Part shown: piece after piece, positions 1,295 through 51,235 of the stretch
How positions within the stretch are numbered: position 1 is the first letter of the stretch
Layout of the letters: each line of letters opens with the position of its first letter
Source of the DNA: Capsulimonas corticalis
Lineage (GTDB): Bacteria > Armatimonadota > Armatimonadia > Armatimonadales > Capsulimonadaceae
DNA length: 64,000 nucleotides
Direction of reading: 5' to 3'
NCBI RefSeq assembly: GCF_003574315.2
Contig: NZ_AP025739.1
Coordinates: forward strand, 5,642,001-5,706,000
The notes under the pieces: model-generated
Told to the model about the DNA's origin: nothing
Database searches by the model: none
The model's input: the letters and a program-made list of their open reading frames with translations, nothing else
Position numbers and translations under genes: made by a program

Positions 1295-1305
1295 GAGCAC
1301 ATCCC

Positions 1306-1641
1306 ATGAGCTACACATTGAATGGACAGGCGGTCGCGTTGACCGAAGAACCGCATGAAAAAGACGGCGTCGTCTACGTGCCATTGAAAGAAGTCGTCAC
1401 CGCCCTCGGCGGAACGGTCACCTGGGACAACGAAACCAAGACCGCCGCCGCGACCATCGGCCAGTGGACGGCGACGTTCCAGATGGCGGAAAACACCGCG
1501 GACGTCAACGGCACCGCCGTGACATACTCCGCCCCGTCCTATGTCGACAACGGCGAACTCTACGTTCCCGTCGACTTCTTCCAGCAAGCCTACGGCTACA
1601 AACTCGCCGGCTCCGGCACGGATGTCTCGCTGTCGGTTTGA
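1306..1641 (+). CDS. Stalk-domain protein (copper amine oxidase N-terminal-like)
   Basis: Protein of 111 residues beginning MSYTLNGQAV, preceded by AGGAG at 1292-1296. It shows the pattern of the stalk domain known from copper amine oxidase-like N-terminal domains: YVPLKEVVTALGG followed by VTWD, then a second half ending YVPVDFFQQAYG. In that family the domain is usually extracellular and attached to other modules. Here it stands alone and has no visible signal peptide, so its location is uncertain. It lies 11 bases after the BON lipoprotein gene, which suggests co-expression. Confidence 0.7.
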   Translation: MSYTLNGQAVALTEEPHEKDGVVYVPLKEVVTALGGTVTWDNETKTAAATIGQWTATFQMAENTADVNGTAVTYSAPSYVDNGELYVPVDFFQQAYGYKLAGSGTDVSLSV

Positions 1642-1731
1642 CCTACCCCGAGGGCGCCCCTGGCGCTTCGCGCCACCCCCTCCCGCCGACGGAAAGGGGT
1701 AACTCTTATGAGGGCGGCCTGCAAAAACGAA

Positions 1732-1768
1732 AAATCCCCATCGCCAGCAATAAAGGCGATGGGGATTT
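1732..1768. terminator. Strong hairpin between convergent genes
   Basis: A perfect 14-bp inverted repeat (arms 1732-1745 and 1755-1768) with a 9-base loop follows the stalk-domain gene. The arms start and end with A/T runs, so it could end transcription from either side. Confidence 0.7.
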
Positions 1769-1877
1769 CGTGTTTATAACTCTTTCCAGTTTGCTGGGAG
1801 TTCACTGGGAAGAGTGTGATCGCCTGCGATTTTTGGTCTTCCGTCCGGCACGGACGGTCGGCGCGAAGCGCCCCCAG

Positions 1878-1940
1878 CCCCGTAATTTATTGCGGGGTCC
1901 CTAATGCGAAGCGTCCCCAGCCGGGTAATTTATTGCCCGG
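1878..1940. repeat. Two tandem hairpins with identical loops
   Basis: Two units have the same 10-base loop TAATTTATTG. The first has stem CCCCG/CGGGG (1878-1882, 1893-1897) and the second CCGGG/CCCGG (1921-1925, 1936-1940). Each is preceded by GCGAAGCG and CCCCAGCC. The stems differ but remain perfectly paired, which suggests selection for structure or a mobile palindromic repeat. The rest of 1642-1984 holds only the terminator at 1732-1768. Confidence 0.6.
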
Positions 1941-1984
1941 TACGCAAAAAACCTACCCCTGTGAGGGGGCGGGTCCCGCGTAGG

Positions 1985-4420
1985 TCACTCCGTCACCATC
2001 CTCACCAAAAACACTGCGAGTAAGATCTCCTCGGTCTCGACATCCGATTCTTTTCCCTGCCGGCGATCGTCCAGCCAGCCCAGCACGCGTCGTACCGGTT
2101 CGTTTCGCTCGGACACTTCGATATATTCCGTCAGTTTCCGCAGCATGGACAGGCATTCTGAAAGACGGCCCGCCGCGTAGGATTCCAGCGCCTGACGCGC
2201 GCGCGCGGCCATGCGCGCGGCGCCGGGCATGTTTTCGCGTTTGGCGCGCTGCTGGAGGCGTCGCTGAACGCTCATCAGGGTGCGGCTAACGACTTCGTCG
2301 CGCGCGAAGGCTTCGAGCGCGAGGTAGGGATAGAGAGAATCCCGACCGCCGACAATGCTGCCGACGGCGTTAATCGCCGAACGCCGAGCAATCGGCGTCG
2401 TGACCTTGTCCAGCGCGCGCAGCAGCGGCTCCAGCGCCGTGAGGCTCCCCACCCGGCCTAAGGCGTCGGCGAGCACCGTGACGGTCGCGGGGTCCGTTTC
2501 GCGGTCCAGAATCGCCGCCAGCGCGTCTCCCGTGGCGGGATCTTCGCGCTCGATCAGCGCCCGAATTGCCGTGGAGCGCACGGAGGGATCGGCGTCCGAC
2601 GCCAGGCTGACCAGCAGATCCGAGACACGCGCGTCGTCGATACGGCCCAGCGCCTCCAGCGCGGCAAGCTGGCGCGACAGCGGACCGAGCTGCGCCGCCG
2701 CGGCGAGCGAGGGGAGCGCCGTCGGACTGCCGATCTTGCCAAGCGCCGTCGCGGCCGCATTGGTGATGCCCGAAGAGGGATCCGCAAGCTTGCTGACCAG
2801 CGACGTCACGGCGCGCTCATCACCGATCTCGCCCAGCGCCCGCGCCGCCTGCTCGCGGACCGGCAGCGCGACATCGTCCAGCGCGCGCACCAGCTCCTCT
2901 ACCGCCACCGGCGTACGGATGGAGGCCAACTGCTCCGCGGCGGCCTGCCGCGACGCCATGCTGCCGCCTTTGGACAGCCTGCTGATACTGCGAAATGACG
3001 CAATCGGTTTTGTGGCGCGCAGCTGACCGATCACATAGCGCGCCGTGTTGCTGCCTTCCTCCCGGATCGGCTGCAGCAGCAAAAGCGCGACTGCCCGGAA
3101 GAACGCCGAAACGAGAAAGACGACGTGGAAGGAATTGCGCACGAGGCCGTGCTCGGGGAAATGCGTCGTCGCGAGGGCTGTGATGATCGCGCCGCCAAGC
3201 AGCGGCGCGATGCCGCCGACGATGCCCGTCGTCGCGCTGACCGCGCTGACATAAACCGTCCGCCGCTCCGGCGGCGCCATCCCAATCATCATGTTGAACT
3301 GCGTGAGGCCTACGCCGGCCCACGCCGCGCCCGAGATCAAGTTGAGCGCGCAGATATCCAGCTTCGAAAACGAGACGATTACTCGCCCGCCTTCGGCCAC
3401 CGTCCAGAGGCCGGGGAAGCTGTCCGGCACGGTCACCAGCCACATAAACGGCGCCACCAGAACGAGCACATTGCAGATCGCCAGGATCGGCTTGTTGCCG
3501 TACTTGTCCGCCAAGTACCCCCACAGCGGCATCGCCCCCAACCCCGCGACGGATGCGACGGCCCCCAAAAGCTGCATGACCGTATAGTCATAATGGAGGT
3601 ACTTGAGCTGGTAAACGGTGAAGAACTGGCCCGCGACACCCGGCGCGGCCGCGAGGATCGCATTGTAGAGCATGATCCTCAGAAAGTTTCGATCTTTGAA
3701 CGGCGCGCCGTAGTAACGCAGCGCCGCCTTGGCGCCGGACGCCACCACATCGCTGCCGGCCGGCTGCGCGACATCGGGACTTCGAGATCCTAAAAAGAAC
3801 GAGCAGCAGGCGAAGACGCTCGCCACGCCAAAGAGAATCCCAAACGCGATCGGCTCCGACATCGTCGCCCGCTTGGTCGCATGGTCGATAAACAGTCCGC
3901 CCACGATGCTCGCGACCATTCCGACAAAGCCCGCGTACATATTGCGCTGCCCAAAGTACCGCCCGCGGTAATCTTTGGGAACGAGATCGGAGATCCAGGC
4001 GGTCCAAAGCGGACCGCCCACATTCAGCAGGGCATTGGAGATGACGGTGAGGATGAGAAAGACGCCCACCCAGAGCGATTTCGGCAGCAAAAACGGAATC
4101 AGCAGCATCGGAATCCACAGGAGCCGTCCGACGATGGCGGTCCAGATCACGATCTGCTTGCGATTGCCGTAGCGCTGCGCGTAATAGGAGGAGACGAGCT
4201 GGAGAAGGCCGGCGAACGCGGGGATCGCCGCCAGAGCGCCGATAATGAAATCGCTGCACCCCAAATAAATCGCGAATCCGGTCTGGAACGCGCCGCCGAC
4301 AAACGTCCCCCAGATGGTGGCGACGCTGCCCTCCACGGTCCAAAGCCGCAGCGCGCGCTGCACCGCCAGGCGGGACAATTCCCCCGTCGCCTCATCCGTC
4401 GTGTTACTCTGCTTGGTCAC
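1985..4420 (-). CDS. MFS transporter fused to C-terminal HEAT repeats
   Basis: Protein of 811 residues with a GTG start (no clear Shine-Dalgarno). Residues about 30-450 are a 12-helix major facilitator domain; KDYRGRYFGQRN and the ISDLVPKDYRG-type loop resemble MFS members of unknown substrate. From about 485 to 720 there are roughly six HEAT-type helical repeats (for example VREQAARALGEIGDERAVTSL). The last 90 residues form another helical stretch. HEAT repeats usually bind protein partners, so the tail may be a cytoplasmic regulatory or docking platform. Ordinary MFS proteins are about 400 residues, so this one is twice the usual length. Substrate unknown. Confidence 0.8.
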   Translation of the reverse strand: MTKQSNTTDEATGELSRLAVQRALRLWTVEGSVATIWGTFVGGAFQTGFAIYLGCSDFIIGALAAIPAFAGLLQLVSSYYAQRYGNRKQIVIWTAIVGRLLWIPMLLIPFLLPKSLWVGVFLILTVISNALLNVGGPLWTAWISDLVPKDYRGRYFGQRNMYAGFVGMVASIVGGLFIDHATKRATMSEPIAFGILFGVASVFACCSFFLGSRSPDVAQPAGSDVVASGAKAALRYYGAPFKDRNFLRIMLYNAILAAAPGVAGQFFTVYQLKYLHYDYTVMQLLGAVASVAGLGAMPLWGYLADKYGNKPILAICNVLVLVAPFMWLVTVPDSFPGLWTVAEGGRVIVSFSKLDICALNLISGAAWAGVGLTQFNMMIGMAPPERRTVYVSAVSATTGIVGGIAPLLGGAIITALATTHFPEHGLVRNSFHVVFLVSAFFRAVALLLLQPIREEGSNTARYVIGQLRATKPIASFRSISRLSKGGSMASRQAAAEQLASIRTPVAVEELVRALDDVALPVREQAARALGEIGDERAVTSLVSKLADPSSGITNAAATALGKIGSPTALPSLAAAAQLGPLSRQLAALEALGRIDDARVSDLLVSLASDADPSVRSTAIRALIEREDPATGDALAAILDRETDPATVTVLADALGRVGSLTALEPLLRALDKVTTPIARRSAINAVGSIVGGRDSLYPYLALEAFARDEVVSRTLMSVQRRLQQRAKRENMPGAARMAARARQALESYAAGRLSECLSMLRKLTEYIEVSERNEPVRRVLGWLDDRRQGKESDVETEEILLAVFLVRMVTE

Positions 4421-45867: not shown

Positions 45868-46278
45868 TTACATCAGGGCTCGGACCCAGTCCATCACCAC
45901 GCGTCCGGCTTCCAGATGGCGCACCGCGATCTCGCGGTCATACATCTGCGCGGGAACGCCCTCGGCGGCCTCCACCGTGCGCGCCGTCAGGAAGTCCGCG
46001 TTCAGCTCCGCCGCCGCGTTCATGACTTCCAGAGGGGCGTGCAGGGCGTTGGCGCTCTGGATAATATTGTGTCCGCGCGGGTTTTTCTGAAGACGCAGGA
46101 TGCAGGCGGCGCGGAGGCATTTTTCGGCGGTCTGCTGCGCGAAAAACACGGCGGCGTAGTAGATCCCCGCATCATGAAGCGTGACGGCGGTGGCGTAATC
46201 CGACTTGGCCTGAGCCCAATTGTTCTGGGCCGTCGACCGCTCGATCAGCCATGCGTCCTGGTCCTTCTCATCCGGCAT
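45868..46278 (-). CDS. HEPN-domain protein without nucleotidyltransferase partner
   Basis: Protein of 136 residues. The helix YYAAVFFAQQTAEKCLRAACI is the HEPN signature and NPRGHNIIQSANAL follows in the place of the family's conserved R-x-H segment. HEPN proteins are often RNases or antitoxin-controlled toxins beside MNT nucleotidyltransferases. Neither neighbour is an MNT gene. It is therefore an orphan or a solitary HEPN protein of unknown target. Its start is preceded by GGGATAG only. Confidence 0.85.
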   Translation of the reverse strand: MPDEKDQDAWLIERSTAQNNWAQAKSDYATAVTLHDAGIYYAAVFFAQQTAEKCLRAACILRLQKNPRGHNIIQSANALHAPLEVMNAAAELNADFLTARTVEAAEGVPAQMYDREIAVRHLEAGRVVMDWVRALM

Positions 46279-47737: not shown

Positions 47738-47813
47738 GGGGGATTAGCTCAGCTGGGAGAGCGCTTCAATGGCATTGAAGAGGTCAGCGGTTCGATCCCG
47801 CTATCCTCCACCA
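47738..47813 (+). tRNA. tRNA-Ala (anticodon GGC)
   Basis: The full cloverleaf can be drawn. Acceptor GGGGGAT pairs with ATCCTCC (one G-U), the D-arm is GCTC/GAGC, the anticodon arm CTTCA/TGAAG has loop ATGGCAT (anticodon 47771-47773), and the T-arm is AGCGG/CCGCT with TTCGATC. CCA is encoded at 47811-47813. It is followed by a terminator hairpin and then by the McrBC genes. Confidence 0.97.
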
Positions 47814-47840
47814 CTCTGACAAGATATTAAAGTCATTTAC

Positions 47841-47870
47841 AGCCGCTTCAATTGAGAGATTGAGGCGGCT
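47841..47870 (+). terminator. Terminator of tRNA-Ala
   Basis: A 12-bp stem (AGCCGCTTCAAT with ATTGAGGCGGCT, one G-T pair) has a 6-base loop and is followed by GTTTTT. It ends 28 bases before the McrB ATG. Confidence 0.8.
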
Positions 47871-47898
47871 GTTTTTGGCTTTTGGTAAGGCGAAATTA

Positions 47899-50046
47899 AT
47901 GCCGGAGAATTCCACAACCGCAGAACAGCGAGCCGCGCAGACCATCGCCGCCTTGCTTCCCGACGCGCGTCAAGACATCAGCGTTATTCCGATCTTGGCG
48001 GCGCGGGAGGAAGTGCTGGCGCGATTCGGGGCGATATTTCAGCCGGACAGAATCGCTTCCCTGGAGTTGGCGCAATACAGAGACTTTCTCAAGTTTGAAA
48101 ACAACAAGCATTGGCGAGGGTTTCTGCGGCGTGGGGTGGACGCGCGGGACATTGAGGCGCTTCGAGCGGCGCTGACGGATTTACTGGATGAAGGGGCGCC
48201 GATCGCCGGGCGCATCGATCGTGCGACGGCGCGCGTGCCTGGCCTCAGCGTCGCCATCGCCACCGCGATCCTCCATATTGTGTCGCCGGCGAAGTATGCG
48301 CCGTGGAGCCGGACGTCGGCGCAGGCGCTGGAGCGACTGAAGTTACGGCCGAAGTTTACGCGGGACGCGACGGCGGGTGAAAAGTACGAAGCGATCAATG
48401 CCGTGGTCGTTCGGCTTGCCGAGAGGCTCAGTCTGCACCTGTGGGACCTGGATACGGTCTTTCAATATTTCGTCGCGGGACCGACGGATGAGGAAGAGTT
48501 GGACGAAGACGGACCGCAGCCGCCCCTGGTCGATACTTTGTCCGAAGTGCTTCACTTACAGAAGCACTACACGTCTCAGATCTCCAATGGCGCGATGCGC
48601 AAGCGCGGTCACTTTGTCACGCGGGTCGCGCCGAAGTATCTGCGGGAGTTTATCAATCCGCTGCGCTTTCCCAATTACCACTTTGAATACGAAGGCTCCA
48701 ACGGAAACGCGACCTGCGCGAAAGTCCCCTACGTTCGGATCTACTCGCCGGAGGAGGCGCCGACAGTCGCGGCGGCTTACTCGCTGGTCTACCTCTTCGC
48801 CGCCGACGGCTCCGCCGTTTATTTGTCGCTCAACCATAGCGCTTCGGAGAGCGGCGTCCGGGCGAATCGTGAGCGCGTGAACCGTGCGCGTTCGCTTCTG
48901 CTGGAGAAGAACTTCCGGGCGCGCGGTCTTAAGTTCGACATCGATCTGAAAGATCCCCGGGGCCAGATGTGCAAGTCGTTCGAGGAGGGAAATGTCTTCG
49001 CCATCGAATACAAGCTCCCTCTGCCGGACGAAAGCGTCCTCCAAGAGGACCTGTCGGACATGCTGCACGGCTTGTATACGATCTATCACGACGGCGAAAC
49101 GCCCGCCCTCGCGGCGCCGACGCCGCCGAGCCTGCAATACAGCGCGTCCGGCTCCGCGCCAGGCGCATACGTGCGCGAGACGCCGTCCGATTTTTCCGCA
49201 GCTCCAAAGATCGCGCCGCCTTACTCCATGTCGGAATGCGCGGAGGAGACAGGGATTTCCGAGAAGACGATTGCGGAGTGGCTGCGCGCGATTGAGCGCA
49301 AAGGCCAGGCGATCCTTTACGGCCCTCCCGGAACTGGAAAGACATACGCCGCCCAGCGATTGGCGAAGGTTCTCATCGCGGAAACGGAAGGTTTCGTCGA
49401 ACTCGTCCAATTTCATCCGTCCTACGCCTATGAGGACTTCATTTACGGCATCCGCCCCACCCCCGGCGCCGCCGGAACGCTCAATCTGGAGCCGGTCCCG
49501 GGACGTTTTGTGAACTTCTGCCGGCGAGCGCGCGGGGTAAACGGCGCATGCGTGCTGATCATCGACGAAATTAACCGCGCCAATTTGTCGCGCGTGTTCG
49601 GCGAGCTGATGTATCTGCTGGAGTATCGAAAAGAAACGATCGATCTCGCCATCGGCGTCCCGTTCTCCATTCCGGAGAACGTGCGGATCATCGGGACGAT
49701 GAACACAGCCGACCGGTCCCTCGCCGTTGTCGACCACGCGCTGCGCCGCCGCTTCGCATTCTTCGCGCTCGCGCCCAATTACGAAACGCTGCGCAAGTTC
49801 CATCGCGCCGCCGGCTTCCCGGTCGATGGCCTGATCGGTGTGCTGAACCGCGTGAACGACGCCATCGACGATCCCCACTACCACATCGGTATCAGCTACT
49901 TTCTGCGCGCGGACATCGCGGACCATCTTCCGGAGATCTGGACGGTGGAAATCGAGCCCTATCTGGAGGAGTTTTTCTTCGATCAGCCCCAGGTGGTGAC
50001 ATCCTACCGGTGGCCGCAGGTTCGGGACAAGATCCTCCATGGCTAA
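47899..50046 (+). CDS. McrB-type AAA+ GTPase of a modification-dependent restriction system
   Basis: Protein of 715 residues. The ATG at 47899 is taken because TAAGG is upstream; a TTG at 47860 would sit inside the tRNA terminator. Residues 1-195 contain a helix-hairpin-helix-like part (VPGLSVAIATAILHIVSPAKYAPW). About 212-400 match the MrcB N-terminal domain (DUF3578). The AAA+ motor has Walker A GPPGTGKT (475-482), Walker B LIIDEINR (553-560) and the McrB signature MNTADRS (601-607). With McrC it translocates and cleaves DNA bearing modified cytosine. It overlaps mcrC by 8 bases. The extra N-terminal module is not part of E. coli McrB. Confidence 0.92.
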   Translation: MPENSTTAEQRAAQTIAALLPDARQDISVIPILAAREEVLARFGAIFQPDRIASLELAQYRDFLKFENNKHWRGFLRRGVDARDIEALRAALTDLLDEGAPIAGRIDRATARVPGLSVAIATAILHIVSPAKYAPWSRTSAQALERLKLRPKFTRDATAGEKYEAINAVVVRLAERLSLHLWDLDTVFQYFVAGPTDEEELDEDGPQPPLVDTLSEVLHLQKHYTSQISNGAMRKRGHFVTRVAPKYLREFINPLRFPNYHFEYEGSNGNATCAKVPYVRIYSPEEAPTVAAAYSLVYLFAADGSAVYLSLNHSASESGVRANRERVNRARSLLLEKNFRARGLKFDIDLKDPRGQMCKSFEEGNVFAIEYKLPLPDESVLQEDLSDMLHGLYTIYHDGETPALAAPTPPSLQYSASGSAPGAYVRETPSDFSAAPKIAPPYSMSECAEETGISEKTIAEWLRAIERKGQAILYGPPGTGKTYAAQRLAKVLIAETEGFVELVQFHPSYAYEDFIYGIRPTPGAAGTLNLEPVPGRFVNFCRRARGVNGACVLIIDEINRANLSRVFGELMYLLEYRKETIDLAIGVPFSIPENVRIIGTMNTADRSLAVVDHALRRRFAFFALAPNYETLRKFHRAAGFPVDGLIGVLNRVNDAIDDPHYHIGISYFLRADIADHLPEIWTVEIEPYLEEFFFDQPQVVTSYRWPQVRDKILHG

Positions 50047-51235
50047 CCCGCGCATCATCCGACTGTCGGAGCGCAAGCCCAAAACGCTGCGCCGGGACGA
50101 ACTCTCCGAGGATCTCGCGCTACGCCTGTGCCGCAAGTATTCGCACGCCGTCACGGTGGAGTTTCCGACACCGCTCAACGAAGACCGCTGGACCATCACC
50201 TCGCAAGGCTGGATCGGCTATCTGCCGGTGTCTCCCGAGTTCTCCGTCGAAATCTTCCCGCACATTCTGATCGATAACCTCTTCCGGATGCTGGAGTACG
50301 CCTATCGGCTGAAAAACTTCAAGATCCTGCCTGGGACGATTCGCGTCAAATCCATCCAAGAGCTATTCGACCGCCTCGCGCACGTGCTCGCGGACCTCGC
50401 CATCGCACGACGCCGGCGCGGACTCTATCGCGAGTACGTCGCCACCTCCGACGATATCCCTTTCGTCCGTGGCCGAGTGGACTTCGCGCGCCACGTACAG
50501 CAGCCCTGGCGCGGCCGTTTGGACTGCGAGTTCGAGGAGCACACGGCGGACATCTCCGACAACCAGCTCATCGCCTACTGCTTGGAGCAAATTGCGCGAA
50601 GCGGACGCTGCTCGGAAGCCACAATCCCGCACATCCGCCGCGCCTATCGCATGTACGCCTCGGAAATCGCCGTTCCCCAATTCGACGCCAAGGCATGCCT
50701 TGGCCGGCTTTATCACCGTCTCAACCAGGACTACGAACCGATCCACGGCCTCTGCCGCTTCTTCCTGGAGCATCTGGGGCCACATCTGGAATACAGCGGC
50801 GACCACACGATGCCGCCGTTCATGCTCAACATGGACCGATTGTTCGAACTCTTCGTCGCCGAGTGGCTGACAAAGCATCTGCCGCCCAGCCTGCAAGCGC
50901 GCGTTCAGGAAACAGTCAAGCTAGATCCAACGAATCGCCTCCAGTTCCATATCGACCTGGTGATCTATGACCGAGACCAGGGCGTCCCAATCGCCATCCT
51001 CGATACCAAGTACAAGCGCCCTAAAACGCCGAACACCGCAGACGTGGCGCAGGCAGTCGCATACGCCGAATCCAAAGGCGTGAAGACGGCGGTTTTGATC
51101 TACCCGGAGCGCCTCCCCCGGTCATTGGAGATCACAGTGGGGCAGACGCGTGTCGAGACGCTGGAGTTTGACTTGACAAAGCCGCTTGAGGAATCGGGGA
51201 GCGCGTTTTTGGAACGGCTGCTTGCGTTTCTCTGA
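50039..51235 (+). CDS. mcrC: McrC-type nuclease subunit
   Basis: Protein of 398 residues with McrC features throughout: the N-terminal beta domain (ISVEIFPHILIDNLFRMLEYAY-type region), FVRGRVDFARHV and the C-terminal PD-(D/E)xK nuclease with Asp306 (HIDLVIY) and DTKYK (Asp322, Lys324). NTADVAQAVAYA and VLIYP follow as in McrC. It forms the cutting subunit with McrB, eight bases overlapping. All nuclease residues are intact, so the system looks functional. Confidence 0.93.
   Translation: MANPRIIRLSERKPKTLRRDELSEDLALRLCRKYSHAVTVEFPTPLNEDRWTITSQGWIGYLPVSPEFSVEIFPHILIDNLFRMLEYAYRLKNFKILPGTIRVKSIQELFDRLAHVLADLAIARRRRGLYREYVATSDDIPFVRGRVDFARHVQQPWRGRLDCEFEEHTADISDNQLIAYCLEQIARSGRCSEATIPHIRRAYRMYASEIAVPQFDAKACLGRLYHRLNQDYEPIHGLCRFFLEHLGPHLEYSGDHTMPPFMLNMDRLFELFVAEWLTKHLPPSLQARVQETVKLDPTNRLQFHIDLVIYDRDQGVPIAILDTKYKRPKTPNTADVAQAVAYAESKGVKTAVLIYPERLPRSLEITVGQTRVETLEFDLTKPLEESGSAFLERLLAFL

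What the first reader, a model, noticed from the sequence alone, without database searches (positions are those of the whole stretch)
47738..51235. McrBC system behind tRNA-Ala, with an added N-terminal domain in McrB
McrB begins 28 bases after the tRNA terminator, a classic place for acquired islands, although no integrase or repeated tRNA end was found. Its first 195 residues add a helix-hairpin-helix-like module before the MrcB_N domain. That module may change which DNA modification is recognised.
Basis: partly seen in the sequence, partly recalled or inferred. Interest (0 to 1): 0.6.

Follow-up and report, generated by a model that had tools for sequence, protein, structure and literature searches.

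The report
McrBC restriction with disarmed glycosylase domain
A bacterial enzyme that probably cuts foreign, chemically modified DNA carries at its front an extra domain that looks like a DNA-repair glycosylase without its usual cutting residues, and the same unnamed domain is joined to several other nucleases in bacteria, archaea and viral sequences, so it may be a widespread sensor of odd DNA bases.

Summary
mcrB (47899-50046) and mcrC (50039-51235) follow tRNA-Ala(ggc) and its terminator. McrB residues ~30-195 form a domain distinct from MrcB_N (residues 234-390). No Pfam or NCBIfam family covers it. A confident AlphaFold2 model (pLDDT 94.4) matches Ogg2-type HhH-GPD DNA glycosylases best. 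Profile-profile comparison with Ogg2 agrees (score 36.7 against at most 19.7 in 150 column shuffles). The two catalytic positions are lost in 51 of 51 aligned sequences: Lys is Ala/Gly/Ser/Val/Asn, and Asp is Asn (Ser in the window). An N-x-H-W motif is invariant. The domain is promiscuous: in 52 genome loci it is joined to NucS-like nucleases (35), McrB (4), HNH nucleases (3) and others; the HNH form dominates in viral contigs. Best reading: a glycosylase-derived, non-excising base reader adding a specificity to a Type IV system. Binding and target are untested. A glycosylase lacking both residues is known to be active, so inactivity is not proven. McrBC beside this tRNA occurs in 2 of 101 genomes, both of one genus. 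In the relative a ~2.1-kb insert with a duplicated tRNA end lies between tRNA and mcrB; that duplication does not enclose McrBC.

The parts
47738..47813 (+). tRNA-Ala (anticodon ggc)
   Evidence: ARAGORN
47839..47872 (+). terminator-like hairpin with T tail after the tRNA
   Evidence: 6 such sites found in the region, 4.4 expected by shuffles; this is the longest stem, 15 pairs
47899..50046 (+). mcrB, 715 aa; Walker A GPPGTGKT 475-482, Walker B-like LIIDEINRAN 553-562, McrB motif MNTADRS 601-607
47986..48483 (+). HhH-GPD/Ogg2-like module, McrB residues ~30-195
48100..48114 (+). residues 68-72 NNKHW; N69, H71, W72 invariant in 51 of 51 rows of A3
48235..48273 (+). helix-hairpin-helix stretch (residues 113-125); glycosylase catalytic Lys column is Ala119
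48301..48309 (+). residues 135-137 PWS; glycosylase catalytic Asp column is Ser137 (Asn in 50 of 51)
48598..49068 (+). MrcB_N (DUF3578/ADAM) domain, residues 234-390
49312..49755 (+). AAA_5 GTPase domain, residues 472-619
50039..51235 (+). mcrC, 398 aa, PF10117; D306 and D322-T-K324 fit the McrC nuclease motif (motif recalled)

Best explanation
A two-gene Type IV (McrBC) restriction system whose McrB has two DNA-reading domains in tandem: an N-terminal HhH-GPD domain descended from Ogg2-like DNA glycosylases that has lost the usual catalytic residues, then MrcB_N. Shown by computation: domain order, fold, loss of the two catalytic positions, promiscuous fusion to nucleases, intact GTPase and nuclease motifs. 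Inferred: the module binds duplex DNA, flips or probes a base with the conserved N-x-H-W loop as wedge, and does not excise it. Binding of a modified base recruits or orients the McrB hexamer, GTP-driven translocation follows, and McrC cuts. The base it reads is unknown.
For: AF2 model of residues 1-202, pLDDT 94.4, pTM 0.90. Its Foldseek ranks 1-7 are all Ogg2 (prob 0.98-1.00) and all 50 rows shown are HhH-GPD glycosylases; VIA Z 9.3, 9.0, 8.2, 8.1 for four Ogg2 entries against 6.4 for the next. A second model from another sequence (Phaeobacter, with nuclease tail) again ranks Ogg2 (3knt 5.3e-4) and EndoMS/NucS (1.0e-4) on top. Profile-profile score with Ogg2 36.7, P 6.9e-5, against a maximum of 19.7 in 150 column shuffles. 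Catalytic Lys column: A 27, G 20, S 2, V 1, N 1; Asp column: N 50, S 1; no Lys or Asp in 51 rows. In 52 genome loci the module is fused to NucS-like nuclease in 35, McrB in 4, HNH in 3, NOV_C in 1. Among 147 neighbouring ORFs the commonest Pfam families are Type I restriction parts (Methylase_S 8, N6_Mtase 7, HsdM_N 7); McrBC has 3. Known McrB N-terminal domains (DUF3578, YTH, LlaJI B3) are DNA readers (PMC7680126, passages).
Against: No DNA binding or modification preference was tested. The window's own copy is atypical: Ser137 where 50 of 51 have Asn, and the second Gly of the hairpin is Ser117. MrcB_N alone could supply specificity. Sis-HhH-GPD lacks both catalytic residues and is an active glycosylase through E134 (PMC11754123, abstract and passages). 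No control set was run for the neighbour census.
Confidence: 0.6

Rival explanations
1. The module is a DNA-binding or assembly domain with no base flipping; MrcB_N alone decides the modification read, so the system behaves as an ordinary 5mC/5hmC McrBC.
For: MrcB_N is present at E 6.4e-19. HhH motifs often bind DNA without base specificity (recalled). The window copy has a degenerate hairpin (GLS) and Ser137.
Against: Several positions stay invariant over 51 rows (N69, H71, W72, R105, D185), and the module is fused to nucleases that lack MrcB_N, which suggests it carries specificity itself. The host genome has C5-cytosine methylase matches at four places, which an unrestricted 5mC reader might endanger (weak inference).
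Confidence: 0.25
2. The module is an active glycosylase with an unusual active site: it excises a modified base, and McrBC or the fused nuclease acts at the abasic site.
For: Sis-HhH-GPD lacks the canonical Lys and Asp yet excises bases. Glycosylases act in phage defence (Brig1 and Brig3). EndoMS/NucS-type tails could cut damaged DNA.
Against: At the canonical Lys site, where Sis-HhH-GPD is described as having its essential Glu instead, this family has Ala or Gly in 47 of 51 and never Glu. Brig1 and Brig3 are of the uracil- or alkyladenine-glycosylase type, not HhH.
Confidence: 0.1
3. The resemblance to HhH-GPD glycosylases is a chance likeness of helical bundles.
For: VIA Z values of 8-9 are not decisive for helical folds. 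TM-scores to Ogg2 are at most 0.50.
Against: Sequence profiles hit several Ogg/AGOG entries independently of structure. Score 36.7 against a shuffle maximum of 19.7. Two models from different sequences agree.
Confidence: 0.05

Closest known systems
E. coli K-12 McrBC
   Same: MrcB_N (DUF3578/ADAM) plus AAA+ GTPase McrB, separate McrC; MNxxDRS motif
   Different: E. coli McrB has only about 145 residues before the aligned stretch, hence no room for the HhH-GPD module; the NCBIfam equivalog score is 165 against a cut-off of 637
Ogg2-type 8-oxoguanine DNA glycosylases (PF22175; 3n0u, 3knt, 3fhf, 3fhg)
   Same: predicted fold over nearly the whole module; hairpin and C-terminal Asp align
   Different: catalytic Lys and Asp lost in 51 of 51; no Pfam match; joined to nucleases or GTPase
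TgMcrB (YTH), EVE-McrB, LlaJI (B3) McrB-like proteins
   Same: McrB motor with an N-terminal DNA-reading domain (PMC7680126 and PMC7641849, passages)
Brig1 and Brig3 anti-phage DNA glycosylases
   Same: glycosylase-fold proteins used against modified phage DNA (passages)
   Different: uracil-DNA-glycosylase superfamily (Brig1) or alkyladenine-glycosylase-like mixed alpha/beta (Brig3), catalytic, not HhH and not described there as fused to a restriction motor

Membership tests
McrBC Type IV restriction system | McrB AAA+ GTPase with Walker A, Walker B and MNxxDRS | tested here: met
   AAA_5 4.7e-22; motifs at 475-482, 553-562, 601-607
McrBC Type IV restriction system | McrC partner with PF10117 and PD-(D/E)xK-like nuclease residues in the same operon | tested here: met
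   2e-41; D306, D322-T-K324 (motif recalled); 8-base gene overlap
McrBC Type IV restriction system | MrcB_N recognition domain by sequence | tested here: met
   6.4e-19 over residues 234-390, cut-off passed
McrBC Type IV restriction system | GTP-dependent cleavage of modified DNA | not testable with these tools
   needs a bench assay
E. coli McrB equivalog NF008457 | score over the curated cut-off of 637 | tested here: not met
   165.2 bits
HhH-GPD glycosylase, Ogg2 branch | HhH-GPD fold | tested here: met
   fold from models only
HhH-GPD glycosylase, Ogg2 branch | Pfam HhH-GPD or Ogg-HhH match | tested here: not met
   no Pfam family at E<=1 for residues 1-204
HhH-GPD glycosylase, Ogg2 branch | catalytic Lys in the hairpin | tested here: not met
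   0 of 51 rows
HhH-GPD glycosylase, Ogg2 branch | catalytic Asp after the hairpin | tested here: not met
   0 of 51 rows; Asn 50, Ser 1
HhH-GPD glycosylase, Ogg2 branch | base excision | not testable with these tools
   needs a bench assay
Brig-type defence glycosylases | uracil-DNA-glycosylase or AAG-like fold | tested here: inconclusive
   no such fold among the listed matches, which is no exclusion
tRNA-integrated island | duplicated tRNA 3' end enclosing the cargo | tested here: not met
   one copy only in the window and 10 kb beyond; the relative has a duplication that excludes McrBC

The most novel reading that the evidence does not exclude
The module founds a new class of modified-base readers: an Ogg2-like DNA glycosylase disarmed at both catalytic positions and passed around as a specificity domain among McrB motors, NucS-like nucleases in or near Type I restriction operons, HNH nucleases of viral contigs and stand-alone proteins, reading a base other than 5-methylcytosine.
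Probability: 0.45. Interest if true: 0.8.

Novelty: new variant of a known kind. Interest (0 to 1): 0.62.

Why it matters
If right, restriction systems have turned a repair glycosylase into a reader for modified DNA, alongside the known DUF3578, YTH/EVE, SRA and B3 readers. The same unnamed domain sits in front of several nuclease types in bacteria, archaea and viral contigs, so one binding experiment would bear on dozens of proteins annotated as hypothetical or NucS-like. It could also yield a new sensor for unusual or damaged bases.

Tried and rejected
Rejected: that the module belongs to MrcB_N. Pfam places MrcB_N at residues 234-390, also when that part is scanned alone, and one phylum relative (G079) has MrcB_N in a 683-aa frame without a module match.

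Rejected: the locus being conserved at this tRNA across the phylum. Both the module and MrcB_N (over its cut-off) occur in only G000 and G001 of 291 genomes. Of 14 stretches around tRNA-Ala genes (L127-L140), only L127 has mcrB/mcrC; I take L127 and L080 to be the same contig (same length, same matches).

Rejected: that McrBC sits inside the tRNA-bounded insert of the relative. The tRNA fragment lies upstream of mcrB.

Inconclusive: how often McrB recruited the module. The tree places McrB forms at three spots, but one clade is not rejected (p-AU 0.053). Also inconclusive: foreign origin by composition. Uninformative: PHROGs and PADLOC scans of the module; BFVD matches were weak (no E<=0.001). 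No match to the module in 50,697 phage records.

Not in print as far as searched: the listings of paper searches (concerned the organism) showed no title or abstract start about an HhH-GPD domain in McrB. The CoCoNuT census (PMC11090510) has no 'HhH' or 'glycosylase' in its main text; its supplements were not read. DV-NucS of PMC10140301 (passages) has an N-terminal extension that was not compared with this module. PMC12923530 (abstract and outline) and PMC12839542 (passages) did not describe it.
Full report
The locus. tRNA-Ala(ggc) lies at 47738-47813, followed by a terminator-like hairpin at 47839-47872, mcrB at 47899-50046 (715 aa) and mcrC at 50039-51235 (398 aa), which overlap by 8 bases. 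McrB carries MrcB_N (6.4e-19, residues 234-390) and AAA_5 (4.7e-22); McrC carries PF10117 (2e-41). The GTPase motifs GPPGTGKT, LIIDEINRAN and MNTADRS are intact, and McrC keeps D306 and D322-T-K324 (the McrC motif is recalled). It is the only PF10117 match in this 7.6-Mb single-contig genome.

The added module. Residues 1-204 match no Pfam model at E<=1 and no NCBIfam model. E. coli McrB has about 145 residues before the stretch that aligns, this protein 424. The module recurs elsewhere: 11 of 291 genomes of the phylum, 7 plasmid records, 13 viral-contig loci and 52 genome loci, in many bacterial phyla and archaea. No match was found among 50,697 phage records.

Fold. AlphaFold2 on residues 1-202 with 51 aligned sequences gives pLDDT 94.4 and pTM 0.90. 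In the PDB the first seven Foldseek matches are Ogg2 8-oxoguanine glycosylases (best E 3.6e-3, prob 1.00), and all 50 rows shown are HhH-GPD glycosylases, though none has E<=0.001. VIA-align gives Z 9.3 (3knt, 166 aligned, rmsd 4.8), 9.0 (3n0u), 8.2 and 8.1 for Ogg2, then 6.4 for endonuclease III; its note warns that such Z values alone are not decisive for helical folds. Sequence evidence agrees independently: the profile's best three PDB sequence matches are Ogg2 (3n0u 0.017, 3fhf 0.048, 3knt 0.061). Profile-profile comparison with four Ogg2 proteins of the same phylum gives P 8.7e-5; rerun with a control it scores 36.7 against at most 19.7 in 150 column shuffles and 14.2 for the reversed profile. 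A second model, of a Phaeobacter homologue with its nuclease tail (pLDDT 87.4, pTM 0.62), again finds Ogg2 (3knt 5.3e-4) for the front and EndoMS/NucS (1.0e-4) for the tail (VIA Z 14.5 for EndoMS and 8.6 for 3knt).

Active site. The Ogg2 hairpin (GIGxKEAS, with the catalytic Lys) aligns with the module's hairpin, and ILD (with the catalytic Asp) aligns with VWN. Over 51 rows the Lys column reads A 27, G 20, S 2, V 1, N 1 and the Asp column N 50, S 1, the Ser being the window. F47, F63, L64, N69, H71, W72, L95, R105 and D185 are invariant. I read this as a disarmed glycosylase whose N-x-H-W loop and C-terminal Asp are kept; the wedge role is inference. A caution: Sis-HhH-GPD lacks both residues and is an active glycosylase that depends on a Glu (PMC11754123, abstract and passages). 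This family has no Glu at the Lys column.

Company it keeps. By tail search seeded with one NucS-like and one HNH-like tail and by Pfam on selected members, the 52 genome loci hold: NucS-like nuclease tails 35, McrB 4 (L065, L073, L078, L080), HNH 3 (L072, L090, L093), NOV_C 1 (L094), stand-alone 1 (L085), a truncated frame without Pfam match 1 (L091), and fragments or undecided tails 7. Of the 13 viral loci, 12 have the HNH-like tail and one is cut by the contig end; PHROGs names the L040 tail endonuclease VII (1.5e-10). In 32 aligned NucS-like proteins D266, E281 and K283 are invariant, as expected of a live nuclease. In a Paracoccus plasmid the module-NucS gene lies between the methylase and the specificity subunit of a Type I system. 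Among 147 neighbouring ORFs (up to two a side within 2.5 kb; L080, L085 and ORFs over 900 aa left out) the commonest Pfam families are Methylase_S 8, N6_Mtase 7 and HsdM_N 7; McrBC has 3 and Phage_integrase 3. No control neighbourhood was scanned. On a tree of 69 modules the McrB forms stand in three places; holding all six together is 20.1 log units worse but not rejected (p-AU 0.053), so repeated recruitment is likely, not proven.

The tRNA. Full-length McrB with the module occurs in 2 of 101 genomes, the window's and one of the same genus. That relative (L080, titled Capsulimonas sp., taken to be the same contig as G001:C724) has the same xylB-HEPN-AhpC-cytochrome-tRNA order. Its tRNA is followed by about 2.1 kb of unrelated sequence and then a partial copy of the tRNA 3' end with a window-like terminator, just before mcrB. 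The tRNA has thus served as an integration site there, most simply after McrBC was already in place. In the family, G006 and G002 keep cytochrome c near tRNA-Ala(ggc) but no McrBC. McrB is 68% and McrC 75% identical between the two species, against 91% for xylB, 96% for HEPN, 74% for AhpC and 69% for cytochrome c. GC and GC3 are near those of the neighbours. So McrBC is a genus-level, probably acquired, gene pair beside a used tRNA site; its own means of arrival is not seen.

Mechanism. The most likely course: the HhH-GPD module and MrcB_N read DNA together, one or both holding a flipped modified base; McrB assembles with GTP; McrC cuts. That McrB N-terminal domains differ and set specificity is reported for DUF3578, YTH and LlaJI B3 (PMC7680126, passages). 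That this module reads a modified base is inferred from its ancestry, its lost catalytic residues and its fusion partners. The host genome has C5-cytosine methylase matches at four places, which gives a weak reason to think the system does not simply attack 5mC.

Novelty. The McrBC system itself is a known kind. The reader domain appears undescribed in the papers listed by my searches, in Pfam and in NCBIfam; supplements of the McrBC census were not read, so prior notice there is possible.

Noticed in passing
L080 5459-7690: In the same-genus relative an insert of about 2.1 kb, holding two unrecognised ORFs, lies between tRNA-Ala and a duplicated tRNA 3' end: a footprint of integration at this tRNA.
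   Followed up: partly
window 45868-46278 (-): A stand-alone HEPN protein (PF05168, 6e-14) is 96% identical in the relative, more than any neighbour compared; no recognised partner gene was seen beside it.
   Followed up: no
L031 3986-5065: A module-NucS gene sits inside a Type I restriction operon, between methylase and specificity subunit, with an FRG-domain gene also inserted; it may be a resident add-on to Type I systems.
   Followed up: partly
L084 5783-6952 (+) and about 1304-2509 (-): Two oppositely oriented module-NucS genes in one locus.
   Followed up: no
G000:C1 1521219, 1916525, 6428074-6429900, 6932387: The host genome has PF00145 C5-cytosine methylase matches at four places, one of them in three pieces within a 635-aa frame.
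   Followed up: no
BFVD A0A6J5L8T5, A0A5P8D6E5: Weak structural matches (E about 2) of the module to phage amino acid:DNA transferase domain proteins, which act in base hypermodification (role recalled).
   Followed up: no
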